Below, piece by piece: positions 6,647 to 62,760 of a DNA stretch of 64,000 nt. Under the pieces are notes generated by a model, which saw nothing but the letters and a program-made list of their open reading frames with translations, did no database searches and had not been told where the DNA came from. Position 1 is the first letter of the stretch. Each line of letters opens with the position of its first letter. Source of the stretch: Atriophallophorus winterbourni. Taxonomy: Eukaryota > Platyhelminthes > Trematoda > Plagiorchiida > Microphallidae. A program made the position numbers and the translations under genes. The stretch spans positions 1 through 64,000 of the forward strand of contig JACCGJ010001492.1 of the NCBI GenBank assembly GCA_013407085.1, given 5' to 3'.

Positions 6647-6718
6647 GCCGTGGTAGTCTAGTGGTTAGGACATTGCGTTGTGGCCGCAAGAACCCAGGTT
6701 CGAATCCTGGTCACGGCA
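6647..6718 (+). tRNA. tRNA-His (anticodon GTG)
   Basis: The sequence folds as a complete cloverleaf. The acceptor strands 6647-6653 and 6711-6717 pair over 7 bp (one G-T), with discriminator A at 6718. The D arm contains the A-box TAGTCTAGTGG. The anticodon stem 6673-6677/6685-6689 encloses the loop TTGTGGC with anticodon GTG at 6680-6682. The T arm contains the B-box GGTTCGAATCC. There is no intron and no encoded CCA. A T-run follows. It looks like a functional single nuclear gene rather than a SINE head, because no extra sequence or tail is attached. Confidence 0.95.
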
Positions 6719-6726: not shown

Positions 6727-7239
6727 AAAAATTTTTGTAATTGTGCGTAGTACATTCATTCGCCGCAAATTTCAATAAATGATCACCCATATATCATTAG
6801 CTGATCTTTACATCGTTAATCTGTGTGTTGTTGAAATTCTTGTGAATTGTTCACTGCACTGTTAAGTGCACGTGATGTGAGCAACACATTACTTTAATCA
6901 TTTCAGTTTTTCAATCAACTCACATTCCGGACTAGATGAAACAGAAAAAAGCTTTGTTTCTTTGACCAAATTTTCAGCAAATATTAATTTAACCACACAA
7001 ATATCCAGAATACAATGTTCGAACTGAAGTTAAAATTTATTGTTCTATGGAAATCTTCGCATTGCAAGTCAAATTTTCAATTCCGAAAATGCTTCAAATT
7101 GGTAATAACTTCCATCATCAGTATATGTATCACAAACACTGAGTTTCTTCAACCATGTATCAGTCAGCGGATCATAGCAATCGTCAGCTTCCGCAAACTA
7201 TGAGAATCCTGCTTGGATATTACGTAACGGAACTTCAAC
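6727..7239. other. No recognisable gene
   Basis: AT-rich spacer between the tRNA and a LINE end; nothing identifiable. Confidence 0.5.
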
Positions 7240-13262: not shown

Positions 13263-14999
13263 AGTCGGTGATTAACTTATGATGGGTTATCAAGATATAT
13301 TTCTCGTTATTCCATGTTCAGCAAACAGCCACAAACCGGTGTGAAGGAGATATCAGCACCACAATATGATAGTTACGTATTATAAAAGCGGAAATAGGTA
13401 TTTTGCAACGGCGCTGAAAACGCACACTGCAATTGGCGATTCCCTTTTAAGAAAATGTATTACAAGTTTATTGAAATAGTTGCGTCAAAAAGAATGAGAA
13501 ATTAATGAACAACAATGAGTCAACAACCTCAATACCGATTTCTGCCGAAAACAAAACAATTCGTTAACAACATACCTAACATCCTAATGGCCGCAAAGAA
13601 TGACCATTGGCATACAACATCCTGACAAGTGTCCGCCTCCGAATTCAAAGAATACTTAACCAGAAACCTTAAATCTTTTTCCATTGCCACCGGCCAAATA
13701 GGCTTATTTCGTAGTGATTATTAATCGCTCATATGCTTTCACAACTTTTTACGTTCCACTATGACATTGCCTATGAAGTAGTCCTCTTCTTCGTTCTTAC
13801 ATTTTTAACAGTGCTTCCTCCATCACATGAATCCCACCCACATAAGCAAGAAATTGAATAAAATGACAGATCTTGTGACCACATGATACATGAGCTAGAG
13901 GTCTTGACATCAAACGCCGTGTATCCAACTTCGATTGATAGTGTTGGTGGTCCAAACATTTTCATCTGTCTAAATTGGTGCCATGCAAGCGCAAGTTTCT
14001 TCAAAATTGGCACGCTGTACCGAAAGGTTTAGAAGAAATGTGTATTTCGTACGGATAATACTACGTGGTTAATAACTGGTTATTGATTTTCAAATAGCGC
14101 TATGAAACATTCCACTTGGGATTTCAAATATGAGTTTATTGCTTGACTACTCAGTCCCAAAATGTTCGCGGGCATTCATACTTTGCTGTTCACCTCCGTT
14201 TTGTAGTTGCGGAAAATTGGTGCATACGATTCAAACCACCTTTTGATAATTCTTCTTCCATGCGGTGGACTGAGCGAAATTACAACAAAGATCGGCAACT
14301 TGTTTTTTCAGAACAAATTATCTTCTATCTGTAATTTCGGAAGATGTGAGAAACACATCACTTTGGTTATCTTCTATATCGTTTTAGAGTTTCCCTACAA
14401 CTTATTTTTGCCAATTGATTTACGTTTTTTGAAGTAGCGTACATACACTATGGTTTATCCGAGGCATATTGCTTTGGTGCTCGAGAGTCTTGAGATTGGA
14501 ATTCCGAGTAATTCTATGAAAAATTTAAGCAACATTGTATGATTTCTGCGTTTGCTATTGATAATATATCTCCATCTGTTGTTCAAATGAAAGCAGATCC
14601 AATTATACCTGGATTATCTTCACTAAACCCGAATCAGGGGTCGAGTTCAAACATGCAGTCACTCAATCATTTCCTCAACGAAGTGTCAAGATCAACCTCA
14701 GCGATAATCATCGGATGTCTCTATGAAACTGGACCCAGGAGCGTTCCGCAAGGACCACACGCCTGGCGTTCATATGATCAATTGATAGATAAACACCCTG
14801 GATCATACTCTTGTTGAAGCTGATTGCGGTCAACGTGTATTTTGATAAAAAGAGCTGCGAGTGCATATATTATCGATCGAAAATTCGATTAAAATTAGAA
14901 CCCCTATTTGTTTCAGAACTGTATGAACAGATGATTTTATGATCTAGTTAATTGTAGCCAACATTTTTAACTAAGATACCGAGTAAAGAACCGACACCA
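13263..14999. other. No recognisable gene
   Basis: Short open frames (13771-14013, 14143-14437, 14539-14817) have no recognisable motif. No repeat seen. Confidence 0.45.
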
Positions 15000-25363: not shown

Positions 25364-25410
25364 CGTTGGTAACGCTTCACTTCTGACAACGAAGCCTCGT
25401 CAGACCAACG
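25364..25410 (-). ncRNA. Hammerhead ribozyme motif, PLE type
   Basis: On the minus strand: stem I CGTTGGT (25410-25404) pairs perfectly with ACCAACG (25370-25364). The core CTGACGA is at 25403-25397. Stem II GCTTC/GAAGT has a 7-nt loop. GAAG replaces GAAA at 25378-25375. CGTT at 25374-25371 gives a minimal stem III with predicted cleavage after T 25371. PLE terminal repeats are known to carry hammerheads with very short stem III; the fit here is visual. Confidence 0.75.
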
Positions 25411-26640
25411 GTTATAGTCAGGACAAGGAACATGATTAAGTAGTAGTTAACCCCCACCACTGATTTGACGTTACTGCTAAACAGCCTATAATACGCCTAC
25501 AGTGTGTCACGTCTCGTGGGAATGACCAGAATCAATGGTCGATTTTCATAGTAGTGTGTTCAGATAAAATTAATACAACTGAACACGGTCAAGGTCGGTT
25601 GACACAGCGGCCCACATACGGAAAAGTACATAACTAACGGGGATGCGGTTAAGCTATTTTCGAAGAAAAACAAAAATCTAATTAACTAGTAGGTATAATG
25701 TGAATAACAACTATTTACCTACGCATCAGTGCCGATCGCCAGATTGTGGAGATTTCTGCCCCATCCACCTTATTGACCGCTTGTCGACGTGCCTTACCAA
25801 TTTCGACCGCCTCTGCATGTAGGCGTTCGCTATACGGTTTAATACCGCGTCTCAATATTTCCACGTTGTCTAGATCGACGCTGTGACCCTTATCTAAAAC
25901 TTGCTCCGCCAAGGCGGAATCACGAATAAGGGATTGATATTCCCTCGCATCCCGGGGATGTCTCCGGACACGCTTTCGGTGTTCTTCGATTCTAGTGTGA
26001 ATTTCCCTGGAAGTCTGGCCTATGTAAACACACGAACAGTCCTTACAGTTGATTCTGTAGATGCTGTACGTGACGCTAGATAAAGGCGTCTTATCCTTGA
26101 GGTGCATCAGAACCGAACGTATAGTTTTCTCTTTCTTATAAGTTACGCGTATGGCCGCCTGGTTCAAGATTCTACGTATCGCTTCACATATGCATTTTAC
26201 ATACTGTATACAAACTGTATCCCGCAAATTTTTCTCCGATTTTTGTGAGGGGTATTTGATCTTCATCAATTGGCGTTTACAAAACTTTTTTATTAACCGT
26301 CGTCTATGAGACTTTGGCTCGGTTCCCGGTACGGCTGTTTTCGGTATGTTTCGTCGGTGCAGAAGTGCTCTATCATATGGAAAATGGATCAGCAATGGAC
26401 CTGAGAACATGTATTGGATGAGCTGAAGTGTATCTCAGTAGCATCTGTATCGATAGGTTTCCGTTAGACATAAGCTTTCATTTTCCCGTCTACATTTTGT
26501 GCTGAACAGTCCAAAATTGTAGAGTGCCTGTGCAAGATTCCACTCCGATTTGTGATCGAAATATGTTGGTCTATTTCATTTCTAAGAAAGAACTACTTCG
26601 TATTTAATGCGCAATTACATAAAAATAAGAAGTGTTGGCC
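25364..26640 (-). mobile_element. Penelope-like element copy 1: RT C-terminus, GIY-YIG domain, 3' region with ribozyme
   Basis: The minus-strand frame 26410-25715 (231 codons) contains TYSIYRINCKDCSCVYIGQT followed by SREIHTRIEEHR. This is the GIY-YIG endonuclease fold that canonical PLEs carry C-terminal to the RT. The Tyr and Gly of the YIG half, the Arg of TRIEEH and the downstream Glu region are visible. It ends in VDGAEISTIWRSALMRR. Upstream of 26410 the RT-to-linker part (ILDCSAQNVDGKMKAYV, then RKPIDTD) is readable but stops interrupt it. The 3' untranslated region runs to a hammerhead motif at 25364-25410. The remainder of the RT is missing. Confidence 0.92.
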
Positions 26641-27462
26641 ATATTTAACCGATATCTCCAGTACATGCGAACATGTATATGGAGTATTTCGAAAAGAAAG
26701 CCCTTAACAATGAAGGGCTTACGCCAAAATTATAATGGCGCTATGTTGATGACACATTTGTTATCTTCAAGCGAGATCAGTTTATGGCCATCTTCAACTG
26801 TTTAAATGAAATAGACTCGCGTATTACGGTCACAAATGAACTTGAATCATGCACTGGCAATCTTCCATTTTTGGACTGTATAGCTTTAAGAACAGCATAT
26901 GCAGAATCAATTGTAAGGACTGTTCAGGTGTTTACATAGATACGGGCCACATCGTTGATCTAGATAATGTGGAAATATTGAGACGTGGTATTAAACCGTA
27001 TAGCGAACGCCTACATACGGAGGCGGTCGAAATTGGAAGGGCATGTCGACAAGCGGTCAATAAGGGGAATTGGACAGAAGTCTCCACAATCTGGCGCTCG
27101 GCACTGATGCGTAGGTAAATAGTTGTTATTTACATTGTACCTACTAGTTAATTAGATTTTTGTTTTTCTTCAGAAATAGCTTAACCGCAGCCCCGTTAGT
27201 TATGTACTTTTCCGCATGTGGGCCGCTGTGTCAACCGACCTTGACCGTGTTCACTTGTATTAGTTTTATCTGGACACACTACTAGGAAAATCGACGATTG
27301 ATCCTGGTCATTCCCACGAGACGTGACACTGTAGCGTATTATTGGCTGTTTAGCGGCAAGGTCTAATCATTGGTGGGGGTTGACTACTACTTAATCATGT
27401 TCCTTGTCCTATCACCCTTGGTCTGACGAAGTTTGTGTCAAAAGTGAAACGTTACCCAAAAA
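26641..27462 (+). mobile_element. Penelope-like element copy 2, head-to-head with copy 1, two internal deletions
   Basis: Plus-strand translation starts with NMYMEYFEKKALNNEGLTPK and the catalytic WRYVDDTFVIF (YVDD codons at 26742-26753). It continues to LESCTGNLPFLDC near 26880. Then an internal deletion joins directly to YAESIVRTVQ / CRINCKDCSGVYI of the GIY-YIG domain. A second deletion removes the catalytic-Arg helix (VYIDTGHIVDLDN). The end EVSTIWRSALMRR and the 3' region match copy 1 closely, ending with the ribozyme at 27418-27459. The two copies form a large imperfect inverted repeat (arms about 25364-25900 and 26940-27460). Confidence 0.9.
27418..27459 (+). ncRNA. Hammerhead ribozyme motif, PLE type
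   Basis: TTGGT (27418-27422), core CTGACGA (27423-27429), a partly disrupted stem II (GTTTG-TGT-CAAAAGT), GAAAC (27446-27450), GTT with predicted cleavage after 27453, then ACCCAA closing stem I. Stem II has lost one base relative to the copy at 53.96 kb. Confidence 0.7.
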
Positions 27463-27663
27463 CCTCCTGTAACCGATTGCACTCTAATTTCTTTGTAAAG
27501 TTTTATTTCAAATCCATCACGATCGATTGTGAAATACCCATTTTACAAAAATTAAATTCTGCGACGATTGGCAAAATTCGAAGTTGCTCCGCAGTCAATC
27601 GACTTGACCTTCGATTATATTATATAAACTTATTATAAACTTACAGAAACGGTTCCGGTGTAT

Positions 27664-27967
27664 TGCATGCAATAACGTGATTAAAAACGGTAAATGCTTT
27701 CACGCTGGATTCTTAATCCTGATATAATAATTCACGATATAGTTAGAATCTGCTCAGCGAAAAATCATTGTTAATCGAACTGGTGAGATCGCATGTGTGC
27801 GAAAGGTAGTATCCGCGCAATATCTGTAAGCAGTTGGTTTGGTCTTTGACCTAACCAAATTATGTGATCGACGCATGCGGATCGTAAACTTACTGTCCCT
27901 ACCTAATGAGAGCAAACAGCACGAAACCGGTCGTAAGGTGTATGTGAAGGAACTGCATGCAATAACG
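27664..27967 (+). repeat. Hammerhead repeat R2, one full monomer (about 290 bp) with duplicated ends
   Basis: TGCATGCAATAACG occurs at 27664 and again at 27954, so the segment is one monomer plus a 14-bp overlap. Order inside: hairpin H2 GGATT/AATCC (27707-27719), hairpin H1 TTGGTT..GGTC/GACC..AACCAA (about 27835-27859), then a hammerhead (27897-27938). The same order is found in the R1 and other R2 copies. Location: 200 bp beyond the ribozyme of PLE copy 2. Confidence 0.7.
27897..27938 (+). ncRNA. Hammerhead ribozyme motif, R2 type (slightly decayed)
   Basis: Stem I CCCTAC/GTAAGG with one mismatch; core CTAATGA (G5 to A); stem II GAGC-AAACA-GCAC with one mismatch; GAAA at 27923-27926; ACCGGT; predicted cleavage after C 27932 (GUC). 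The G5 change would abolish activity in this copy. Confidence 0.6.
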
Positions 27968-29872: not shown

Positions 29873-30925
29873 AGGATGCACTCTATGTGATGTAAGCAGA
29901 CTTCCTTTATAATGGGGAATCCGCTGTGCGTCCTCGGTGGTTGTCGTGAGTAAAAATATCGCGGAAGATTTCATGCCCCCGGAATTATTTCGCCTCATGA
30001 GTCTTCTTCTAATAGTCTTTCCAAATTGCATACCGTTCACTAGCCCTCCAACAGCCCTTGTTTCCGACAAGTTCTCATGAATGATTCTCTTTCGCTACGT
30101 TGATGAAGTAGCTTTTATCTGGCACTCTACAAAAGAGAGCTTCACATTCCTCCCTGACTACCTCTTAAACCTGTCTCGGTTAAAATTTTGAAACTCCGGA
30201 TTATTGAAATTTTATAATTATATCATAGGCCATGGAAGATGATTATGTTTTTACCGCCAACTCCTTAATCTATGATCATTTTGTTTTGCGATCATCCTTA
30301 TGTAGGTGACCGCTCGATCTGATGAGACGTCAACGTATTTTTAAATGTAGCCATAGTTTCCTATATAAAAGCAACATTTTTTACTGAGCTGTTCCCTCAG
30401 AACTCTCTTGTATATGCATGCACAAAGTTGCGGGAAAAAAGTTTATTCACTACATTTTTTCTTCTCAGCATTAAAATATCATTTCTAGCTGGGCATCAGA
30501 GAAATTCCAAAACAAATTATTTATTCAAAAAAATTTAACGCATCAGCAAAAAATGCACGTCGTTTCTCGTTTCGATTGACACATCACTACCCGAAGCGGA
30601 ATAACCAATGTGTCTTAAGGCTACCCTGAGAAGCCGTTTAAAACATTTTTACAACAGTTTCACGCAAATTAGATGCATATGTGAATAATAACAATAATCT
30701 CGACGTTGCGTCGAAATACCGACACTCTGACAACTGAATTAGCGCCGCGAAAATTCCAATGATAATCTTGGAGCTTGAATATTGAATCTGCCGTTTACTC
30801 TGAATGTTTTTTTCATTTTGCTGAAAATTCGTGAACACGAATAAAGTCATTCTTCTTCTTCTTCTATCGTCCAGAGTCTATAGTATTTTCAAAAACAAAG
30901 CTTGAAGAAAATAACAGCATACAAC
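29873..30925. other. No recognisable gene
   Basis: Contains a (TTC)n run at 30851-30865. No coding motif. Confidence 0.4.
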
Positions 30926-30964
30926 CATGGTCGGCTTCGTGCTGTTTTCACTCATCACGTAGGG
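30926..30964 (-). ncRNA. Decayed hammerhead motif, R2 type
   Basis: Minus strand: CCCTAC, core GTGATGA (C3 lost), stem II GTG-AAAACA-GCAC-like, GAAG and GCCGAC in place of GAAA and ACCGGT. Clearly related to 48951-48992 but inactive by inspection. Confidence 0.5.
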
Positions 30965-32221
30965 ACTGTATGACCACGGTCCATGTTCGTTGAACATTAC
31001 AGCGTCCGTCGCCTGAGTTAACACTAAAGGTGTAGCATCTCATGTTACAGTGAGAATTGTTTGAACCAATAGAATCAATGCCCCTTTTCCGTGTATTTGC
31101 TTATTAAAATCTGATTCTGTTAGACCATTATTAAGTTTATAACAATGCTTCGCGTAAATACAGTGAATATTAAAAACGTCAGCTGAGATCAGTTTGTTTT
31201 ACGTAACCGTGCATAGTGTAATCGCAACATAACACCAAACGCATTAACATGATAAAACTGGTTTAATCACAAACAAATTAATCTCTCAACAATTTTACCG
31301 CCAACCAGCGCAAAAGATCAAAGCCAAATCAGTGAAATTCATTCAATGAAAACAATAGCTACTTCAGTCTGGGAGTTACATCAATTTATTGCCCATAATC
31401 TTGCGCCGATTCCATTAGTCGTAGTTGCACGAGGTCATAAATACCATCAACCATTTGCCAGAAATGGCTAATTAGCTCGTTCCATATCCATAACATATTC
31501 ATTCATATTCATGCGGTATACAATGTTGTTTGTTTGATGTTTGCCGCCATTTTCAAATTATACAACCCTGTATGAACGCAAATGACCACTACTGGTAACA
31601 TTAAACAACGCGTTTCCAAGTTGACCGTAATAAATCAATGTAGAATTTAAATCTACACCTAGCAGGAATCGCAGTCTGTATCAAATGTCCGATCGATTAA
31701 TCATATGGGCGTCATTAGTTAACCGAAGTTGAACCAGGCGCTGTTGCGATCTCCATGGCTATAAGGAAAAGAGGTAGAGATAAACTGGCGCCAAACGTAA
31801 CGAGGCCCATTTTAATCAACTCTTTTATCGTCCACATTGTTTTTGAATGTCTCAGTTACAGGACGAAGAAGCGGGTGATTATATACAACTATCACAAACT
31901 GCACAAGAAACTACGTGACGTATAGTGGAACTAATGTGAGAGGACGCAGAATTCACCACCGTGGCTCTAGTAATATCTTACCTCGTTACTACAAAGATTA
32001 TCTCCATGATTTATGGCTGGCAGGCAGAATGAAATACCACTGAAAGATCAAACGCATTCCGCGATACGAAGGTGGATGTCTGTGGTAGACCGAGAAAAAA
32101 TGACAGCTGATAGAAGATGGCCAGATGTGTTTTTCTTCCACAGCATGTCAGATTAGCTTATCTCCAATTGTTTGAAACCACCGTACGAGACTGGTAAACG
32201 GAATCACCATAAAAACGATTG
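30965..32221. other. No recognisable gene
   Basis: AT-rich; nothing identified. Confidence 0.4.
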
Positions 32222-38711: not shown

Positions 38712-40373
38712 TCACACCTTCGGGAATGCAGTCAGATTGGGTGAGCTGGCATTCAAAGCGGGAATAACAAAAGAGGTCCAGGATAAATCGTTGGTCACTG
38801 GGGTAGTCCGTAAATTTCCGAAAATTTGTGCAGCTTGGTTTTTATCATACCCATTGCTATGACTAACATTTTGTAGAAGCTGCATCCAATATGACTGAAG
38901 ATTGTTATTCTTATCGAGCTGTCGTGAATCTTGAATCTGTGTTGTATGTTGATTCATCTCCCGGATATGCTCGTTATTCGAGGTGGGGACTGAACTGTCT
39001 GTCGAAGGAATGTCTTTGAATCGATTTAAAAGATGAGCCAAATAGGAATTAATTTGGTGTAACCCACTAAAATCAGGCAGTTTGTATGAGATATGACCAA
39101 AGTCCCTTTGAGTGGGATTCGGAACGTGTAGCGAGGGGAACAACTGACATGGATCTTGCAGATTAAATCGTTGTTCGTTGCTTTTGAAATGAGAGTACAA
39201 ATGCATGCACAACTCGGTCTGCGTCGTACAAGAATAGGCGCACAAGGAACATTGTTTCGGTGAAGGCGCTTCGATATTCTCGGCTGTGGACAATGGAAAC
39301 GGATTCGCGTCTCCCTGGAGTCTTGGTGGAACTTGCACATCAGGTATGGAAACATGGCTTGCGGTAGAAGGGGGTTGGGTGGGACCGTTTAGTTTGGAGT
39401 AGAAAAAATCCAAGAATCCCCTGGCTAATTGGTAGGAAAATGCATCTTGTGAACGCAACCTCGATTGTTCGTCATTTTTTCTGAATATATGTTGCAACAA
39501 CTGGTACATAATAGACCACAGGTCTGCTTGTGATACCTGATCTTGTACCGGAGTTGGAATCGTTTCTCGAAACTCGTTAGCTACTGTGCTTGAAGGATAA
39601 GGTTGTACGGGATTGTAATTGGTGTCAATAAATACAGCCTTCTCGTCTTTGCGAATTTTACGAGGAATGTTGGAAATAGAGTTGGCTTGGTGAAACATCC
39701 TGGATCCACTGTTCCTTCTGGCTCGTTTAGATCCCGTGTGAACATGCAAAGTATCGGACCAGCCATATCGACCTTTGTTTAAATTTCCGTCGAGTAAGCT
39801 TGTAACGGAACGAGGTGGTTCGGCGAGCGTTAGACTCGAGGAAAGTCGAGCCAATTGAGCCAAGGCATTTGAGGTGGTGTGTTGACTAAGGGGAGAGGTG
39901 GTGGAATCTCTGTTGAATCTACTCGTTGGTTCTTCCATTCGATGACACTGCTGAGATAGATTAAGACTCCCGAAAGATGGTGAAGTAGAATGGAGTTGAG
40001 TTGACGTTGTAGGTGATAACCTCGACGGCTCCGTCCTCATTGGGCCCCTGGATAGATGATCGACCAGAGACGTGTCGATGCGATTGAGAGGTGACGCACA
40101 GTTTCTATTCACCGAAGATAAATCACCATCATTCCAGTTTATGCAAGCAAACGATGGTCTTTTACCATTTAGAGTAGTTCTCTGATCGCTGACGGGAGGA
40201 TGTTTTGCACGTGTGGACTTCATGTTTTGTAATATAGAGTTCGTAGTGTCCAGCGTGGTATGTTGATGCGGGCGTGATATTTTGTTTGGCTGAGAGCCCG
40301 TTTCGAGCATCTGGCCGATATTTTGACAGGTTTTCGCAAGCATTGCGAGTGGACTCGGACAAACGGGTTCCAT
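38712..40373 (-). CDS. NET-family (Noc/Elbow/Nlz, ZNF503/703-like) zinc-finger protein, exon 2
   Basis: 553 codons, by far the longest intact frame. The exon begins at an ATG directly after a splice acceptor (TTTCTTATCTTCAG), in phase 0 with the donor of the exon at 47108. Residues 7-20 are SPLAMLAKTCQNIG, the SP motif of NET proteins. A basic stretch KRARR (216-220) and RKIRK (238-242) could be nuclear-localisation signals. A single C2H2 finger has C375, C378, H391 and H395. The rest is Ser/Thr/Pro/Gln-rich and low in complexity. The spliced product (67 plus 553 residues) is close to the size of ZNF503/703. NET proteins act in the nucleus as transcriptional repressors in patterning. The finger is a plain Cx2C type rather than the usual NET spacing, and FKPY was not found. 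AAG/GTGTGA at the end could be a donor to another exon. Confidence 0.8.
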   Translation of the reverse strand: MEPVCPSPLAMLAKTCQNIGQMLETGSQPNKISRPHQHTTLDTTNSILQNMKSTRAKHPPVSDQRTTLNGKRPSFACINWNDGDLSSVNRNCASPLNRIDTSLVDHLSRGPMRTEPSRLSPTTSTQLHSTSPSFGSLNLSQQCHRMEEPTSRFNRDSTTSPLSQHTTSNALAQLARLSSSLTLAEPPRSVTSLLDGNLNKGRYGWSDTLHVHTGSKRARRNSGSRMFHQANSISNIPRKIRKDEKAVFIDTNYNPVQPYPSSTVANEFRETIPTPVQDQVSQADLWSIMYQLLQHIFRKNDEQSRLRSQDAFSYQLARGFLDFFYSKLNGPTQPPSTASHVSIPDVQVPPRLQGDANPFPLSTAENIEAPSPKQCSLCAYSCTTQTELCMHLYSHFKSNEQRFNLQDPCQLFPSLHVPNPTQRDFGHISYKLPDFSGLHQINSYLAHLLNRFKDIPSTDSSVPTSNNEHIREMNQHTTQIQDSRQLDKNNNLQSYWMQLLQNVSHSNGYDKNQAAQIFGNLRTTPVTNDLSWTSFVIPALNASSPNLTAFPKV

Positions 40374-40566
40374 CTGAAGATAAGAAAGTAGTGATGAAAC
40401 TTTAGACAGGAATCATGAGACAATACAAGGATTCATATTTATTGAAAATCATACTGTCGTGAAACTTTGTTGGTACAAACACATTCTATCTCGCAAGTAT
40501 AATCAAAAACTCTAATAATTGGAATAAATTATATGAAAACTGATATAAGATGAGTAATTCAGGCAT

Positions 40567-40650: not shown

Positions 40651-42400
40651 TTTGCAATATCTGTTCACGAAATTTGAAATTGATTTAAAGCAAGCTATTA
40701 AATAGGTTATTTATCAGTACAAATTAATCTTTTGGAACTTAATTTCTACATTTCTCTAACGAATATTGCGTAAGGTTCAGGAACCTAAAATTAGCATCCT
40801 GAATTTTCTAAATTTTTTTTACGTTTACTTCGGTGTATATTTTCTATTCGTTTCTTTGTTACCAATTAGTTGAGAACACGCTGTGTTGGACCAAATTCAA
40901 CGCAACATTTGACTGACAGTCTGATTACGTACGCGTGAATACAGTTAACACAATCCGACTGACATGTCAAGTGCTGGCCACCGTCTCCAGACATACGAAC
41001 AAACTCATTTGTTCAACTCAGAACCACGGCATCAGAGGACACGAAACATTCAAGATCGGACCTGAAAGGCACTTTCCGATCGGGTGAAGCCGCTTGTCAA
41101 ATCGTTATCACTGTCAATGATTCACAGTGCGAGAGGTTAAAGTCTGCACATGGTCCACAATTCTCGTGCGTCCGTTCGATATGACACGTGGTTTGTATTT
41201 AAATAGAGCGGGCCTGCCCACGCTCACACACAAGCCACCTGTTCCGTATTTGTAGCGTTGCAGCTAGTATTTGGTGCATATATACACACACACACGTGCA
41301 CACATCAAAAGACGGCTGTCAATCTGTGGCGGTATCTAGACGCGTCGTCCCTGTTTAACCGATCGGAGAAAAAATGACAGGCATCAATCAGCCTCTCTCT
41401 CTTCTGGTCAGATGGAGGCCGAAAAGTTTACCGAAACAGATGCAAAGAGCTTGAGAAAACACACTGAGCACACTTGTTTGATGAGTAAGCGAGACCAAGC
41501 GTCGGTTCTGCGACAAATGAATAGAATTTGGATACATGCATCTCTGTGATGTGCGATTTAACATGTTTAAACTAACTTGGGTTCATTTAGCAAACTCAAC
41601 TCACTATTCAGATGCGAAGTAATCGAATCTAGTTAAACTGTCAAAAAGTAATTTTCCGCACACTGCAATGCAGTTGATTAAACTACACGGGAATCGCCTG
41701 TATCCAACAAACAATCTGCTGGCTATTGTTCCCTCTTCTAAATTTAGTCCGGCTCTTCAATTTTCCACGAAAACTTTTAGCTTGAATTCTTGTTTTGTAG
41801 CTTAAACTTGTGTGTAAAGTGACAAAAAATAACTCGCCAAGAAACTTACAGTAATTTTCGACGATAAATTAGTGGTAATCTGTTTATTTTCTCCTAACGG
41901 GGCTAGTATGATTGTGTATACTGTGGTATGACATGGGCAGGTTAATCAGTAACAGCATCTATCAGTTTCCAATTTTAAACAGGAATGATGAACCATTTCG
42001 ATTCAGCATATTTTACCGAATGTGTCTCACTGATCCGAACAGGATTTTGCGAAGTATCGGTACAGCAACGTTATGATGCCACGTCAATTACATATCAAGT
42101 ATCGAGAAATACATAAATTTGTTTATCAACCCGTTCATCGCAAAATTCTCGTGTCTCCTGTAGAGCATCTTGTGGATTTACGGACGATACTTCGCTATGC
42201 GTACGAGTGATTAGACAAGAGGCAGCGGTCAAGTCCACTAACCATCATCTTCGCAGTGAACCTAGAAATTGTACTACTGTTGAGGCTGAATCTACGATAA
42301 AAAGCAGTTAGTACAAATTAGGGGAACTGTCTGTCCGTGAACAAGAAAATAGTATGACATAAAGCTATAGTATTTACATATAATAACAGTTATTGCTAAG
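40651..42400. other. Intron sequence without recognisable elements
   Basis: A short (AC)n tract occurs near 41283-41297. No coding motif. Confidence 0.4.
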
Positions 42401-42632
42401 TAAGTTGTTGCTCATATCCCCCGCAGTTACACACCACTACCGGTTTATGGCTGCCATCAGATGGACACAGTGAGATTAGGTACAATGAGCCTTGGAAGCA
42501 TGACAAAGTGGTAAACAAAGTTATATTTGAATGCCACTGTTACATAGGGTTCGTATAACGAACCACAGTGTTCTAACACAAAATCACAAAGTGATTCTTG
42601 GTCAAGCACTCGGGGTGTTTATATATGATCGA
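42401..42632 (-). repeat. Hammerhead repeat R1, single monomer, permuted ends
   Basis: Minus-strand order: GAGTGCTTGACC, hairpin H2 (AATCAC-TTT-GTGATT), hairpin H1 (GGTTCGT-TAT-ACGAACC), CAGTGGCATTC, then the hammerhead (about 42466-42434) and GAGCAACAACTTACTT. Length is about one monomer, but it begins before H2 and ends after the ribozyme, unlike the copy at 46.3 kb. The ribozyme core is decayed (GAAA to TAAA, shortened stem II), while stem I/III sequences ACCGGT and GTGG remain. Confidence 0.75.
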
Positions 42633-44142
42633 AGCAAGGTGTAGTTCACATTCCACTGACTTAAAAAGTTATTCCTGTTGTAGGATATTAATGGGATATT
42701 AATTAGGCCAGATGAAGAGTTCTTATTGGCCATAGAAGTAGAAGATGATAAATTTATTTTAGAAAATATTCGTGATTCCAGTTTAAGAATATTGTTGGAA
42801 CCCAAAAATATGCTTTTTATCGGCGAAAATTTTGCGCAATATTGCTACAGTAAATTTGATCACATTTGTGTACCAGTGGACATTAAAAAAAGAATGCAGC
42901 AATGTGCATAATTGTCTCGCGTAATATCAACAGTAAGTTTAATAAAGAAAAACGAAAGGGGGGAAACATATTTAAGTTGATTTATATATACTGAATGGGA
43001 AGCCTTTTTCTTCGAAAATCGTTTTGTTTTATAATTTATTCATTTAAAAGTGCAACTTTTAACATTGAACAAACAACACATAGCACCATTTCCCTATTTC
43101 TAATTCGAAGATACGGATAATTTGGTTGAGTATGATTATGATCCGTTTTGATTTTGATTTTTAATAGGCTCCCATCAATGCAATTCGAAAATATCAACCA
43201 TTGATTTGAAAACAAAGCGCATGGTTCGACATAGTTGTGAACTACAGCTACCAATTCTTCATTGCCTCCGAAGATGTGCTTGATCCTGATCCATTCGAAC
43301 AATACGGAGACCCAGCTCATTTTTACATGTTGCTTTTAAACGTGTAAGATGTCGATTCGATTGTGGATTTCAACGCACAACCCATACGTCTTGAGCAATC
43401 AACTCTTTCTCTCTTTGGGGGAATGCAACACCACCTATTTTAATGCAGGTCTTATTACCAGATTATTCGACAATACATTCTTCATCAAAACGGACACGAG
43501 CTCGCGTCTTTTGTCTTGTTCGTGCAAACATTTCATTTGAAAGTAAATGTGTTAAAAAAATATTTTAAGCCCACTGTGTTGATACTACCTGCGATCAATC
43601 TTTGGCTGTGCTACACCGGTGCCCAAGATCAGCGATTGTTCCCTTTACATTTATTGCCACAAAAATATATGGAAACTTATATTGTTACAATAGACTTTTA
43701 GATACAGTCTTGGTTGAACAGAGAAGATTATATCACAAAGAAAGCAATTTGTTTAAGTTTGCATCGGATATGTGCAGAGATAGTCTAAAAAATGATTTTC
43801 TGCACGGTCAAAACCTAAACACTAAAGCGGGTATGAGAACATGGATGTCAGAATTTCGCATTTTTGTTCCCTCTATATGTCCGCAAAAACTCATTATTTT
43901 TAGCCTCAGATACCAAGCGACAGTAAACAATTACATGCTATGAATGAAACGTGACTTTTAAGTTTAAATTAAAGTCAGCAGCCTGAAGATAGGCAAAATA
44001 TAGTACATTCAAATACCACACAAAATGGCCGACATTATGTCAATAAAAATATGAATTTGTTTCGAATTCTAAGGTGGTTTGCAGCTCATTGATTCCATGC
44101 ATTGACAACAAAGTAAAACGGAATAACGGACGACTCTCGTTG
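42633..44142. other. Intron sequence, no recognisable gene
   Basis: Open frames at 42726-42911 and 43602-43943 lack an ATG at the listed start and have no domain I recognise. Confidence 0.4.
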
Positions 44143-44535: not shown

Positions 44536-45351
44536 TCCCGGTGACAATTCTATGCACGTGTGATAATAAAATTGCTAAATAATATACATAATCATCGATA
44601 TATGACAGGAAGTGCCAGATGTGACAAGTTTGATTAAGCTTTCAGTGTTGATGATGTTTCTCGTTTTTGGAGCTCTGTGTTGTCACTGATGCGTCTACAA
44701 GTGACGGGAAGTTGATGTTGCATTTGAGAGAGAAAAAAACGAAATTGTCATTCAAACGTATTTGTGAGTTTCTATCGATTTTATCTCGGAAACAATTCTT
44801 GTATGAAAATGATGAGCAGTTAAAGATGTACCATCATGGTTAGCGTGTGTACACACTTGAAGCAATAAATTCTGTTTCTGCTGATTATAACCGAATCTGA
44901 ACTTTAGTTGAAGCCTGGTCATTTTCTACCTGGAGACAATCCTTGTGATTCATTTTGGCGGTTCTCAGAATTCATATCTCGATTAATATGAAGCGATGGT
45001 TATTAAATTATTGGTTACATCTGAAGCGTACAAAATTGTCCAGACCATATTCCAAGTAACGATGTTGTTATACAGCTTCAAATGATGCAACAATCAAAGA
45101 ATCATCATTATAAAGCATTGGATTTCTGTGAGGTACATATGCTTGGTACCAATAGAAAAGGAAATTAGGATCGCTATATATAAAAAGCGAGGAATAATTG
45201 TATGCTGATGTGTGAATCGGTAAATCGACATCGGTAAGTAATCAAGAAAATTGAAAATTGTAATAACGTTGTTAAAAGAATATCACTATTTGTACGATTC
45301 TCGTTTTCAACTGAACGAGTAATCAACTAAGCTAAAATAATGGCGTGTAGA

Positions 45352-45456
45352 TGTGAGCATCTGCGAGTATTGATCCTTTTACGTGTAATGAGTGTTTGAT
45401 CGGGGATCCCTATGTGATCCAGTATATGAATACTGTGGTTCGTGTACATAAATCTA
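45352..45456 (+). repeat. Hammerhead repeat R1, partial monomer without the ribozyme
   Basis: Aligns with 62488-62590: TGAGTGTTTGATC, hairpin H2 now GGATC...GATCC, then TGTGGTTCGTGTAC of H1. Only the H2-H1 half is left. Confidence 0.55.
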
Positions 45457-46318: not shown

Positions 46319-46552
46319 AGAGAAGCATAAACAAGGTAATACTTGAATGCCACTGTTGCATAGGGTTCGTACAACGAACCACGATGTCCAAACACAGAAT
46401 CACATAGTGATTCTTGGTCAAGCACTCAAAGCGCTTATGGATGACCAAAGTAATGTGTTGCTCACATCCCCATCTCTTACACACCACTATCGGTTTCTGG
46501 CTGTTTGCCATCCTCAGGTGGAGACAGTAAGATCGTGTGAGAGAAGCATAAA
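46319..46552 (-). repeat. Hammerhead repeat R1, single monomer flanked by a 13-bp direct repeat
   Basis: Minus-strand order: hammerhead (46521-46484), GAGCAACACATTACTTTGG, H2 (GAATCAC-TAT-GTGATTC), H1 (GGTTCGT-TGT-ACGAACC), CAGTGGCATTCAAG. AGAGAAGCATAAA occurs at both ends (46319-46331 and 46540-46552), like a target-site duplication or a monomer overlap. Confidence 0.8.
46484..46521 (-). ncRNA. Hammerhead ribozyme motif, R1 type
   Basis: Stem I CCAC (46521-46518) with GTGG (46487-46484); core CTGAGGA (46517-46511, fits CUGANGA); stem II TGGC-AAACA-GCCA, perfect 4 bp; GAAA (46497-46494); ACCGAT as a slightly broken stem III; predicted cleavage after A 46488. Nearly intact, and in the sense strand of the NET-gene intron. 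Confidence 0.7.
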
Positions 46553-48920: not shown

Positions 48921-48950
48921 CCTTATTTGCATGTACTTCCATCGCGTACA

Positions 48951-48992
48951 CCCCAAGACCGGTTTCGTACTGTTTGCACTCATCAGTTAGGG
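48951..48992 (-). ncRNA. Hammerhead ribozyme, R2 type, complete core
   Basis: Minus strand: stem I CCCTAA (48992-48987) with TTGGGG (48956-48951), 6 bp with one G-T; core CTGATGA (48986-48980); stem II GTGC-AAACA-GTAC (48979-48967), 4 bp with one G-T; GAAA (48966-48963); ACCGGT (48963-48958), a self-complementary stem III; cleavage site GTC, after C 48957. All conserved core positions are present. The zero-loop stem III suggests it acts as a dimer, as known for minimal hammerheads. Confidence 0.85.
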
Positions 48993-49190
48993 ACAGTCAG
49001 ATCAGAATCCGCATGTGCTTGAAACAGTGGAGGAATGGTGAGCAAGTTGTGCTTGTATACAGCTGTTGTATAAGGTTGGTATGACCAACCTGTTCAATCG
49101 TAGTTGCCCGTGGGTTTAACCCATCTAAATGTGTGTTGGCACATGTGAAATGAGCATAAACATGTATTTGCATGTATTTCTATCACACAT

Positions 49191-49232
49191 ATTGCACGGC
49201 CGGATATGCGCTGTTTGCACTCTCTGTCTATA
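49191..49232 (-). ncRNA. Decayed hammerhead motif, R2 type, second tandem unit
   Basis: Aligns base for base with 48951-48992 at +241, keeping GTGC-AAACA-GCGC (stem II) but losing CTGATGA (now AGAGA) and GAAA. Confidence 0.6.
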
Positions 49233-49544
49233 CTTAATGTGCCCCATAATAACGCAAAAAAGTCATTTTCAAATATTTTGATATGGAACAAGGATAACAT
49301 TCTTGTGAATATATGATATTTCTCATGGCTAACGTCTGCTAATTGTTGAAAGAAATTTGACCGTTTTGGATAAACCATCTCCAACACGCATAAAATGTGC
49401 CCGTTTATGAAAACGTATAACCTTCGGTATACAATCCAACATACGGACGAAAACGCAATTCCATGTAATCGCTGGCTTGCAAGCAATTATGTAACCAATC
49501 TGATAGTGTTTCATTGAATCGTTTATAAACACTAAATTATGTTG

Positions 49545-53888: not shown

Positions 53889-54037
53889 TGAAAAAATAAA
53901 GTTTGTAATGAATCTGTGAGAGTAGTTTATGGGTAACGTTTCGCTTCTGACCCTTGGTCTGACGAAGCTTCTGTGTCAGAAGCGAAACGTTACCCATAAA
54001 CTACTCTCACAGATTCATTACAAACTTTATTTTTTCA
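53889..54037. repeat. Perfect 63-bp inverted repeat of a PLE end
   Basis: Arms 53889-53951 and 53975-54037 are exact reverse complements, separated by 23 bases. The right arm plus spacer is a PLE 3' region with its hammerhead (53954-53996); the left arm is the mirror image of its distal part. TTTGTAA...CTTTATTTTTT resembles the region after the ribozyme at 27.46 kb. No PLE coding sequence is attached. Confidence 0.95.
53954..53996 (+). ncRNA. Hammerhead ribozyme motif, PLE type, intact stem II
   Basis: TTGGT (53954-53958), core CTGACGA (53959-53965), stem II GCTTCTG-TGT-CAGAAGC (53967-53983, 7 bp perfect), GAAAC (53984-53988), GTT with predicted cleavage after 53991, ACCCA closing stem I with one mismatch. 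One extra A stands between core and stem II. Confidence 0.75.
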
Positions 54038-56160: not shown

Positions 56161-58254
56161 GCTAACACTGATATCACCCAAACCTATAAACAAGTTAGCT
56201 CAATCATAAGGACCGATTTCTACCATGTGGTTATATTGAATCTTAAATCTTCTCTCTACCGCGAAATTGAAAGATCTTAGTCATCTTTTCAGGTAGACTG
56301 TTGCTTGAAAAAAGACGTTGGGCAGACACCACGCTCAACATAAACTTTTCCTATCTGTGTGTGACATGATATGCATTATTTTATTACATTTTTCCATAGT
56401 AAAATTTTCGTAGGTTAATATATGAATTTATCAAAGTATAATCAAATATTTTATCCGATTCTGATATCAGAGTTATAATATATTTAATTATCAAAATTCA
56501 AATCAAAGCTATCAATCTTCTGAGATTTAGTCCATGGAATTCGAGTGTTTATCATCAAGGCCCGAATTATAAAAGTTTGAAATTTGCCCTGGTTTTCTCT
56601 AACCGATGAGCACAAATGGCGCGAACAGGGTTTGTGTTGTGTTGTAAGAAGCATGAACGCATCATACTTGTTTGCGAGTAGGATGTAGCTCGCTTTGTTT
56701 TCACATAATTTCCTATAATTGATTTTATTCATATGACCTTCAAATAATTTTCACGCGAAGACATTGAACTAGTGGAAGGCGACAATCCTTCAAACTTGTT
56801 ATCTTGCTACGGAATACTTTCAATGATGTATTCATATCGCGTGATCAGACGGGGTGTAATTCGTTTTACATGAATATATCATATTTACACATAAAAACGG
56901 TGCTTTTCATCTTATGACCAAAGCGGCATTTGATGGTTTTTGGTGTGTTTCAATATAATTGAATAATAATCGATGTCACAAAGTAGTATCACACGCATAA
57001 CGTAACAACAAATCAAGTATCCACCGACGGCCCACGCATGGAATTGGTTAATAACAAGGTTGTCACAACGTCACTCGATGCGTTATGCTTCGTGTGGAAC
57101 AATGCGGGTGTATTTCTCACGTAGTGGATGTTAATCGTATCACGAGAAACTATTTGAAAACCCATAAACGAATAGAATTCATGACAATCCAACGAATGTC
57201 ACGACCTAGAGGTACGCGCGGGGACATATTCAACTTTTATATTTGGTAACATATAGGATATGTCGTATGCACTAGATTATTTAAGATGTAAACTTCAAAT
57301 TCTAATTTTCGAGCCGAAGATAAGCTCCGTGGTTTCGGCATGCGTCACATGAAGGCCGTTGGATTATATTTCAGGATGCAGGGAAGCATGACTGTTTTTA
57401 TACTTTAAGCATTCATAGATTGATATGGGACATTGGATGGCCTTTAAAAGTTTGAGTATTGCCCTGTGGTTATTGACCAGTTCGTTTCAAAATCATGATT
57501 CTAAAAGAACAAATCCCCGAGAAAGTCTGCAAATTTTGGGCGGTTAAAAGTTTGAATCAAATTTATAGTATGAATTTACTGTCAACACCACGAATATTTA
57601 TGAAAATGCGTCATCATCAGTGCTCTCAATGTTTGAATGAAGGTTGTGATAATTTAAAGATTGCCAAATTTTCCAACACACGCGACGACAATGGACAGAA
57701 CATCATCAAAACAACTAGTGAAGCATTTCTCGTTGCAGATATTGATCAGGATTAACTATAAACGGGAATATTGTGAATAGCATTGATGAATTACGAGTTT
57801 ATTTGCATTGAAATATTTATCACTGAATCATTTTGGGTGCTAAAGTCACATTTGATCATATTCAATTGCGACTTCCAATTAGATGTTTGGAACTCACAGC
57901 CATTTAAAGTAACAGATGAGAGAGTTCCCAAAATATGTAAATCTATTGAAGTGTATCTACAGTGGTACTCAAAATGGAAGGGCATTGCTCGGACTTGAAG
58001 TAAATTCGATACCACTTTGGAAATATCTCGTGCGGAATATACTAATTAGTTAACGAATCAATACAATATTTTATTGCTTTACTCACAAATTAAAAGCTAT
58101 TAGATGATGAATTTAAGACTGTCTCGATTTATCAACTATGAAACTTTATGAGTGGAAATAGTATGTGATAGATTTACGTATTGCAGGATTATGTACTCAT
58201 CGTAAAATGGAAGGACAAAGTAACAACTGCTACAGTTCTGATCTATAGAGAATG
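56161..58254. other. No recognisable gene
   Basis: The open frame 57495-57755 (86 codons, genuine ATG) contains HHQCSQCLNEGCDNLK, a Cys/His cluster without clear zinc-finger spacing. The frame at 57783-57998 has no known motif. Confidence 0.35.
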
Positions 58255-62100: not shown

Positions 62101-62190
62101 CCATGCTAAGTCACGGTCAATTGTATAGCACTGCAGTTTTGTGGTATTTTCGGGCGTCAAAATGAGTAGAATTACCTGATCTTACTGTCT

Positions 62191-62228
62191 CCACCAGATG
62201 ACGACAAACAACGAGAAACCGGTAGTGG
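62191..62228 (+). ncRNA. Hammerhead motif, R1 unit 1
   Basis: Stem I CCAC/GTGG (62191-62194, 62225-62228); core CAGATGA (U4 to A); weak stem II; GAAA (62215-62218); ACCGGT; predicted site after A 62224. One core change. Confidence 0.6.
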
Positions 62229-62674
62229 TGTGTGAGTAAAGAAGACGTAAGCATCATAATATATTGGTCGGTTAAAAGTGCCTCTGGCGCTTGTCGGGGA
62301 ATCACTTTGTGGTTCCCTATTTGAACATCGTGGTTTTTTATTAAAACCTTATTTGACAGTGCCATACATGTTTACCTTTGTTTAGCACTTCCCCCTTCTG
62401 TTTCAAAGCTCACTAAAACTAATCTTACTTTATTCTCTTGATGACAGCAAATAACCATAATCAGGTTGCGCTGTGTAAGAGCATGGTATGTGAGCAACAC
62501 CATACGTTGGTCGTTTTAAAGTGTCTTGAGTGCTTGACCAGGAATCACTATGTGATTCTGTGTTTGAACACCGTGGTTCGTTGTACGAACCCTATACAAC
62601 AGTGGCATTCAAGTATAACCTTGTTTACCATTTATTCACTGTTTCAATGCTCATTGAACCTAATCTTACTGTCT

Positions 62675-62715
62675 CCAACTGATGACGGCAAACAGTCAGA
62701 AACCGGTCATGATGT
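62675..62715 (+). ncRNA. Hammerhead motif, R1 unit 3
   Basis: Core CTGATGA (62679-62685), stem II CGGC-AAACA-GTCA weak, GAAA (62699-62702), ACCGGT (62702-62707), GTC site after C 62708. Core complete, but stem I is poorly paired. Unit 2 (62430-62480) retains only TTGATGA and is otherwise lost. Confidence 0.6.
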
Positions 62716-62760
62716 GTAAGGGATGCCTATGTGAGCACCATATTAAATCGAGTTGAATTA

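What the first reader, a model, noticed from the sequence alone, without database searches (positions are those of the whole stretch)
48951..48992. Complete hammerhead ribozyme core in a short tandem repeat
On the minus strand every conserved element is present: stem I CCCTAA/TTGGGG, CTGATGA, stem II GTGC-AAACA-GTAC, GAAA, a self-complementary ACCGGT and a GTC cleavage site. It is the least decayed of about seven related copies. The hammerhead class is established; this repeat family is not one I recognise.
Basis: partly seen in the sequence, partly recalled or inferred. Interest (0 to 1): 0.9.

Follow-up and report, generated by a model that had tools for sequence, protein, structure and literature searches.

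The report
Hammerhead-ribozyme retroelement of a flatworm
The hammerhead ribozyme is real and sits in one decayed copy of a tiny, abundant, non-coding jumping RNA element (a retrozyme) of a parasitic flatworm, whose insertions look as if they were made by Penelope-type retrotransposons.

Summary
Minus strand 48992-48951 is a complete type I hammerhead core with a newt-like palindromic helix III (ACCGGT); Rfam Hammerhead_1 gives 30.0 bits, E 0.0023, under the gathering score of 34. A decayed second copy lies 241 nt upstream. The DNA is from a trematode. In its 537-Mb assembly a core pattern occurs 7,573 times, reversed-pattern control 0, in repeats of about 233 or 241 bp.

This is a metazoan non-LTR retrozyme: small, non-coding, hammerhead-bearing, dispersed with target-site duplications. 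What goes beyond the known kind is the insertion anatomy in 100 distinct loci. Elements tend to end at two internal sites; 29 of 98 carry an abutting inverted 5' piece, whose outer end lies at the same two sites in 15 of 29 (2.5 expected); duplications flank whole composites; the target is near-symmetric, AAAA-[~13 bp]-GTTTT. Such structure is the reported hallmark of Penelope-like elements, which abound here; 5 of 150 scored matches lie in stop-free frames over 800 codons. So Penelope-type enzymes probably mobilise this retrozyme. Self-cleavage, circular RNA and the enzyme were not tested, and two sequence tests of the Penelope link were negative or inconclusive.

The parts
48951..48992 (-). 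Complete type I hammerhead motif; predicted cleavage after C 48957 (GUC)
   Evidence: Rfam Hammerhead_1 30.0 bits, E 0.0023
48925..49097 (-). Retrozyme piece (sub2) carrying that hammerhead; unit positions 92 to 31, 85% identical to the L044 unit
49177..49239 (-). Decayed upstream hammerhead (core GACAGAGA); its C17 is 49198, 241 nt from 48957
   Evidence: 38.5 bits, a training sequence
62174..62748 (+). Retrozyme array (sub1), three decayed hammerheads at 62195, 62438, 62679; units 243 and 241 nt; outer limits approximate
62164..62174 (+). Candidate target-site duplication of the array GAGTAGAATTA / GAGTTGAATTA (second copy 62750-62760); weak, score >=8 in 52 of 2829 random placements
46332..46539 (-). 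Single sub1 insertion with hammerhead (core CTGAGGA), 3' end at internal site B
46540..46552 (-). Target-site duplication TTTATGCTTCTCT, left copy; right copy 46319-46331
   Evidence: 13-bp match in 1 of 2829 random placements
42398..42687 (-). Retrozyme copy (sub1), stem II partly deleted, 3' end at site A (unit position 39)
27868..27962 (+). Retrozyme piece (sub2), core CTAATGA; by eye an internally deleted remnant at about 27636-27676 lies upstream
30909..30978 (-). Decayed hammerhead (sub2), core GTGATGA, GAAG
56588..56650 (+). Further decayed hammerhead, not used to build the model
   Evidence: E 3e-4
13319..13340 (+). Probable hammerhead remnant
   Evidence: E 0.03
6874..6901 (+). 3'-end stub of sub1 ending at unit position 46 (site A)
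14330..14371 (+). 3'-end stub of sub1 ending at unit position 47 (site A)
45350..45445 (+). Unit fragment without hammerhead
   Evidence: nhmmer E 6e-8
25368..26581 (-). Penelope-like element fragment with GIY-YIG domain; 5' limit approximate
26649..27495 (+). Second Penelope-like fragment, head to head with the first; downstream part 90% identical over 529 bp; outer limit read by eye

Best explanation
The finding is one decayed copy of a non-autonomous, non-coding retroelement of the metazoan non-LTR retrozyme kind in a trematode. A unit of about 233 nt (sub2) or 241 nt (sub1) carries a type I hammerhead. Inferred from the literature: tandem transcripts cleave at the hammerhead, probably as dimers because helix III is only the palindrome ACCGGU, and monomers are closed to circles. 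Shown from anatomy: new copies arise by reverse transcription that mostly starts at two internal sites (A about 41 nt past the cleavage site, B about 150-160 nt past it), can run past a whole unit, and is often primed from both target strands, giving head-to-head composites with target-site duplications of about 13 bp at AAAA-N13-GTTTT. Inferred: the enzyme is that of a Penelope-like element with a GIY-YIG endonuclease, of which this genome holds many copies, some with long open frames.
For: Hammerhead; stems paired in 79.2% of cells (0 of 500 shuffles; slid versions at most 38.7%), two-sided changes in 6 of 15 pairs (24 of 500 shuffles). Abundance: 7,573 core matches, control 0; sub2 exact core 3,450. 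Unit: spacings 232-234 in 24 of 37 neighbouring pairs. Insertions, 100 distinct loci of 109 (9 dropped as sharing flanks): forward 3' ends at A or B in 57 of 96 (expected 8.4); outer ends of inverted 5' pieces in 15 of 29 (expected 2.5, P 3e-9); controls: forward 5' ends 5 of 69 (expected 6.1), inner ends 3 of 29, forward ends at the junction 3 of 29 (expected 2.5 each). In the 40 loci fetched after the pattern was noticed: 8 of 12 inverted outer ends, 19 of 40 forward 3' ends (counted by hand). Duplications score >=10 in 24 of 98 (expected 0.1), >=8 in 36 of 98 (1.5); 14 of 29 composites have one of >=8 around the whole composite. L024: flanks joined with one duplication align through both Penelope copies of the window, 86% and 84%. 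Target: A 17-20 of 29 at -5 to -1, T 15-22 of 29 at +2 to +6; GTTTT-like in 28 of 46 right flanks of site-A ends at +8 to +17 against 7 and 10 of 46 further out. Inverted pieces abut the 5' end in 29 of 98 but the 3' end in 3 of 99. Penelope parallels: both strands cleaved and extended, two internal start sites (PMC11167929); direct plus inverted head-to-head pLTR, 8-10-bp duplications, optional tail on one side (PMC3846280 passages). Penelope ORF in this genome: 14,397 first-look candidates, 150 scored, 5 of the 150 matches stop-free in frames of over 800 codons.
Against: No shared sequence between retrozyme 3' ends and the Penelope tail (1,434 and 1,875 of 5,000 shuffles as good). The GTTTT motif beside Penelope copies is inconclusive: 7 of 17 against 5 and 3 of 17. 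Penelope 3' ends fall at other words (14 and 4 of 20 at two words, 2 elsewhere). 39 of 96 forward 3' ends and 14 of 29 inverted outer ends lie outside the two windows, and 62 of 98 loci have no duplication of score >=8. LINEs also occur and can give 5' inversions. Windows A and B were fixed after seeing the ends, so the P values are not fully independent. Circles are not shown: a multimeric transcript would give the same insertions, and in PMC11167929 hammerhead mutants still inserted. Sub1 has a C.A mismatch at the base of stem II, may cleave poorly, and the sub1 locus scanned has no Rfam match. Single window hammerheads do not fold better than shuffles in 4 of 7 (best 9 of 200); units fold modestly better (z -2.4 and -1.3).
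Confidence: 0.8

Rival explanations
1. Retrozyme mobilised by a LINE: target-primed reverse transcription with twin priming, as for SINEs.
For: LINE-type reverse transcriptase pieces in the window; 5' inversions and 10-15-bp duplications also occur with LINEs (recalled).
Against: Outer ends on both sides prefer the same two internal sites; in the 6 of 29 composites with both ends inside the windows, one is at A and the other at B each time. No A-tail in the junctions printed. The A-run lies outside the duplication and is mirrored by GTTTT on the other side, unlike the TTTT/AA nick of L1-type nucleases (recalled).
Confidence: 0.15
2. The hammerheads belong to the Penelope-like elements themselves (minimal pLTR hammerheads); the repeats are solo or tandem pLTRs.
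For: Penelope elements carry type I hammerheads in other animals (PMC7761336, passages); retrozyme pieces abut Penelope 3' ends, inverted, in 2 of 20 (L137, L124).
Against: The Penelope 3' region was read in 20 copies; the model hits found there (in 4 of 20) lie beyond the Penelope end. Outer stem I is kept in 87.5% of cells, unlike minimal variants; units stand alone in 233- or 241-bp arrays. Penelope 5' ends were not read.
Confidence: 0.1
3. Plain satellite DNA spread by unequal exchange, the hammerhead being incidental.
For: Long arrays exist (17 exact cores in 6.6 kb of contig C129).
Against: Dispersed one- to few-unit copies with target-site duplications and an empty site.
Confidence: 0.03
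4. Chance or degenerate hammerhead-like sequence without function.
For: Rfam score below gathering; in the window the other copies aligned are decayed.
Against: 7,573 core matches against 0 in the control; paired positions kept.
Confidence: 0.02

Closest known systems
Metazoan non-LTR retrozymes (Cervera and de la Pena 2020, PMC7229834)
   Same: Type I hammerhead in short tandem repeats of 150-450 bp, GC under 50%, dimers to multimers, non-coding, duplications longer than 4 bp
   Different: Helix III is the amphibian kind (1 bp plus palindromic tetraloop), whereas that group reports most invertebrate ones as active monomers; the passages and sections I read describe no preferred internal ends or head-to-head insertions
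Newt and axolotl satellite retrozymes (HHR_Amex1, same paper, section read)
   Same: Very weak palindromic helix III, extended stem I
   Different: 330-350-bp units, amphibian; no sequence compared here
Schistosoma SM-alpha / W-elements (PMC8490949, passages and one section)
   Same: Trematode, type I hammerhead, SINE-like
   Different: No sequence compared here
Penelope-like elements (PMC11167929 parts 1-2 of 4, PMC3846280 passages)
   Same: Tandem plus head-to-head insertions, internal initiation at two sites, both strands used, short duplications
   Different: The retrozyme unit is too short for the Penelope ORF and shares no detectable sequence with the Penelope tail of this genome

Membership tests
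Type I hammerhead ribozyme | CUGANGA and GAAA core with three stems, stem I open | tested here: met
Type I hammerhead ribozyme | NUH cleavage site | tested here: met
   GUC at 48957; mostly GUC in sub2 and GUA in sub1 among listed places
Type I hammerhead ribozyme | Rfam Hammerhead_1 gathering score of 34 | tested here: not met
   30.0 bits here; 25.2-32.9 in relatives, none for sub1 locus L050; E-values significant where matched
Type I hammerhead ribozyme | Self-cleavage | not testable with these tools
   needs in vitro transcription
Type I hammerhead ribozyme | Loop 1 - loop 2 tertiary contact | not testable with these tools
   outer stem I and an internal loop are kept, which makes it possible
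Metazoan non-LTR retrozyme | Hammerheads in tandem repeats of 150-450 bp | tested here: met
   241/243 in window; 232-234 in 24 of 37 spacings
Metazoan non-LTR retrozyme | GC under 50% | tested here: met
   0.38-0.43 in window units, 0.45 in the reference units
Metazoan non-LTR retrozyme | Dispersed copies with target-site duplications | tested here: met
   24 of 98 at score >=10, 0.1 expected; empty site
Metazoan non-LTR retrozyme | No LTR, primer binding site or polypurine tract | not tested
   no scan made
Metazoan non-LTR retrozyme | Accumulates as circular RNA | not testable with these tools
   no RNA data at hand
Penelope-type insertion (works like) | Internal initiation at preferred sites | tested here: met
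   57 of 96 forward 3' ends at two sites, 8.4 expected
Penelope-type insertion (works like) | Head-to-head inverted piece inside one duplication | tested here: met
   29 of 98 loci inverted; 14 of 29 with duplication around the composite
Penelope-like element (is a) | Encodes telomerase-like RT and GIY-YIG endonuclease | tested here: not met
   units of 232-243 nt are too short to encode them
Penelope-like element mobilises it | Shared 3' tail sequence | tested here: not met
Penelope-like element mobilises it | Same target motif at Penelope insertions | tested here: inconclusive
   7 of 17 against 5 and 3 of 17

The most novel reading that the evidence does not exclude
Animal retrozymes are parasites of Penelope-like elements: the Penelope reverse transcriptase/endonuclease cuts a near-symmetric AAAA-N13-GTTTT target on both strands and from both ends starts copying a hammerhead-made circular RNA at two internal sites, running round the circle, which explains tandem arrays, head-to-head composites and preferred ends at once. 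This would answer which enzyme moves metazoan retrozymes.
Probability: 0.55. Interest if true: 0.8.

Novelty: new member of a known kind. Interest (0 to 1): 0.6.

Why it matters
PMC7229834 (discussion read) names LINEs or Penelope elements only as candidates for moving animal retrozymes, and infers that circles are the templates. Here thousands of hammerhead units and many Penelope copies share one genome, and the insertions record where and from which strands copying began. That makes the question testable with one enzyme assay. The copies scanned also fall below Rfam's threshold, so routine annotation would miss them.

Tried and rejected
A loose pattern CTGATGA-gap-GAAA-gap-GTC did not hit the finding, because its last gap was set too long, and its 2 matches are at chance level. 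Pattern scans of viral and prokaryotic collections for the core: 0 hits each. Minimum-free-energy folds of single hammerheads: 4 of 7 weaker than the shuffle mean, best 9 of 200; monomer energies with a 1-bp helix III are poor, consistent with dimer use but no proof. Retrozyme/Penelope tail mimicry by shuffles: negative. Tree of the neighbouring C2H2-like protein to place the species: unresolved, long branch. A cluster of 5' ends at unit positions 90-94 looked like a boundary, but several flanks continue with what looks like a divergent hairpin (by eye); I treat it as no true end. ABAB variation among four units of L044 (3 of 7 variable columns) could mean a dimeric template; one locus only, not used.

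Literature: searches. The one search that joined retrozyme with inversion, reverse transcription and circRNA found 0 papers. The two original reports on Penelope hammerheads are not held and were not read, so novelty is judged only within these searches.

Full report
OBSERVATION. The minus strand of 48992-48951 reads CCCTAA CTGATGA GTGC AAACA GTAC GAAA CCGGT C TTGGGG. This is a full type I hammerhead: stem I of six pairs (one G-U), the CUGAUGA core, stem II of four pairs (one G-U) with loop AAACA, GAA, then ACCGGU as helix III, and C17 at 48957. The whole-window scan against all Rfam families puts Hammerhead_1 on exactly these bases with 30.0 bits and E 0.0023, below the gathering score of 34.

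COPIES IN THE WINDOW. Nine copies were aligned. Pairing over four helices is 79.2% of cells against 71.9% in shuffles (0 of 500 as high) and at most 38.7% when the partner is slid; six of fifteen pairs have a change on both sides (24 of 500 shuffles as high). The structure was drawn from these sequences, which favours the unslid version. Two subfamilies are seen: stem II GTGC/GCAC with site GTC (sub2, the finding) and CGGC or TGGC/GCCA with site GTA (sub1). The second stem II pair changes from U-A to G-C between them; the first goes from G-C to a C.A mismatch or U-A. A covariance model of the nine re-finds them and adds 56588-56650 (E 3e-4) and, weakly, 13319-13340. Unit lengths from cleavage site to cleavage site are 243, 241 and 241, so the finding is itself the downstream half of a decayed tandem. 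One copy, 46539-46332, is flanked by a perfect 13-bp duplication, a match reached in 1 of 2,829 random placements.

HOST. The neighbouring 566-codon frame matches proteins of Fasciola, Opisthorchis, Clonorchis, Paragonimus, Calicophoron and Dicrocoelium at 25-31% identity, and a Schistosoma protein over 8% of its length; a GIY-YIG frame matches a Clonorchis record (annotated as calmodulin) at 51%. The host is a trematode; the species is not identified and a tree did not place it.

WHOLE GENOME. The window is contig C1315 of a 537-Mb assembly. The pattern CTGATGANNGCAAACAGNNNGAAACCGGTH occurs 3,670 + 3,903 times, its reversed control 0 + 0; the exact sub2 core 1,654 + 1,796 times. Among 76 hammerheads in 39 loci found by similarity, 55 keep CUGANGA, GAAA and a UH site, and 65 keep ACCGGT; these loci come from the 40 best of 3,692 candidates for a query containing the motif, so this is not an unbiased rate. 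Neighbouring hammerheads lie 232-234 nt apart in 24 of 37 cases. Sub2-length units within a locus differ by 3.2% on average, between loci by 11.9% (28 and 300 pairs). Rfam gathering is reached in 0 of 13 loci scanned; in a laxer scan of four loci 11 matches of 25.2-32.9 bits appear in three, none in the sub1 locus L050.

INSERTION ANATOMY. 109 loci were mapped on one natural unit of each subfamily: 39 from the similarity search and 70 covering part of the first 100 listed places of the 7,573. Nine sharing flanks were dropped, leaving 100. Unit position 0 is the first base after the cleavage site. Forward 3' ends fall at site A (38-49) in 46 of 96 and at site B (146-153 in sub2, 153-162 in sub1) in 11 of 96, against 8.4 expected in all; 39 of 96 lie elsewhere. 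Inverted pieces abut the 5' end in 29 of 98 loci and the 3' end in 3 of 99. Their outer ends are at A or B in 15 of 29 (expected 2.5, P 3e-9). Controls stay at expectation: forward 5' ends 5 of 69 (6.1), inner ends 3 of 29 and forward ends at the junction 3 of 29 (2.5 each). The windows were set after looking; the 40 loci fetched after the pattern had been noted give 8 of 12 and 19 of 40 by hand count with the windows.

DUPLICATIONS AND TARGET. Scored against left and right flanks of different loci, duplications of score >=8 occur in 36 of 98 (1.5 expected) and >=10 in 24 of 98 (0.1 expected). 14 of 29 composites have one of score >=8 around the inverted and forward parts together, so these are single events; L094 holds an inverted 427-nt piece and about 970 nt forward within 14 bp. 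Six of 29 composites have both outer ends inside the windows, and in each of the six one end is at A and the other at B. L024 lies in a Penelope 3' region, and its joined flanks with one duplication align to both window Penelope copies, with a 5-nt gap at the duplication, giving an empty site. In the 29 cases of score >=9, A-rich sequence precedes the left copy (17-20 of 29 at -5 to -1) and GTTTT-like sequence follows the right copy (T in 15-22 of 29 at +2 to +6; G in 13 of 29 at +1). The motif is near-symmetric, as if both strands were nicked before GTTTT, leaving 3' overhangs of about 13 nt.

MECHANISM. Because insertions tend to start inside the RNA, can run on past a unit, and begin at the same sites from both sides, the template is best seen as a circle or a multimer without a used 3' end. 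PMC11167929 (parts 1 and 2 of 4 read) shows for the Anolis Penelope protein cleavage and extension of both strands and initiation at two internal sites not homologous to the target. PMC3846280 (passages) describes animal Penelope insertions as direct plus head-to-head inverted pLTRs with 8-10-bp duplications and an optional tail on one side. The retrozyme anatomy matches this. The genome has 14,397 first-look Penelope candidates, of which 150 were scored; 5 of the 150 matches are stop-free in frames of 819-825 codons. The window's two Penelope fragments are themselves head to head, and of 20 Penelope 3' ends 14 and 4 stop at two words. Against a direct link: no shared tail sequence and an inconclusive motif test at Penelope flanks. 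Hammerhead cleavage, circles and the enzyme are inferred, not shown.

COMPARISON. By unit size, GC content, tandem form, non-coding nature and duplications it is a metazoan non-LTR retrozyme (PMC7229834: abstract, passages, and the axolotl and discussion sections in full). It differs from most invertebrate ones as described by that group (PMC7761336, passages) by an amphibian-like helix III. Schistosome W-element hammerheads (PMC8490949, passages and one section) are the nearest by host; their sequences were not compared.

VERDICT. The observation and its class are right; the element is a new member of a known kind. The added value is the insertion record, which makes the question of the mobilising enzyme testable.

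Noticed in passing
L137 396-605 and L124 441-606 (turned with the Penelope ORF forward): Retrozyme copies lie inverted with their 3' part against a Penelope 3' end (2 of 20 Penelope ends read; retrozyme unit positions 43 and 28 at the junction), perhaps insertion next to Penelope ends or linked events.
   Followed up: partly
contig C129 5683-12264 of the assembly: A long array with 17 listed exact sub2 cores at near multiples of 233 nt.
   Followed up: no
L044: Four units alternate in three of seven variable columns (ABAB), which could reflect a dimeric template.
   Followed up: partly
window 38712-40412 (-): A 566-codon C2H2-like frame whose named relatives in the search are all trematode proteins, at 25-31% identity apart from a short Schistosoma match.
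   Followed up: partly
window 53930-54015: A Penelope 3'-end piece preceded by a short inverted copy of its own end.
   Followed up: partly
sub1 copies, genome-wide: Many listed sub1 cores have a C.A mismatch at the base of stem II (CGGC/GCCA) and a GUA site, unusual for an active hammerhead (recalled).
   Followed up: no
window 6647-6718 (+): A canonical tRNA gene.
   Followed up: no
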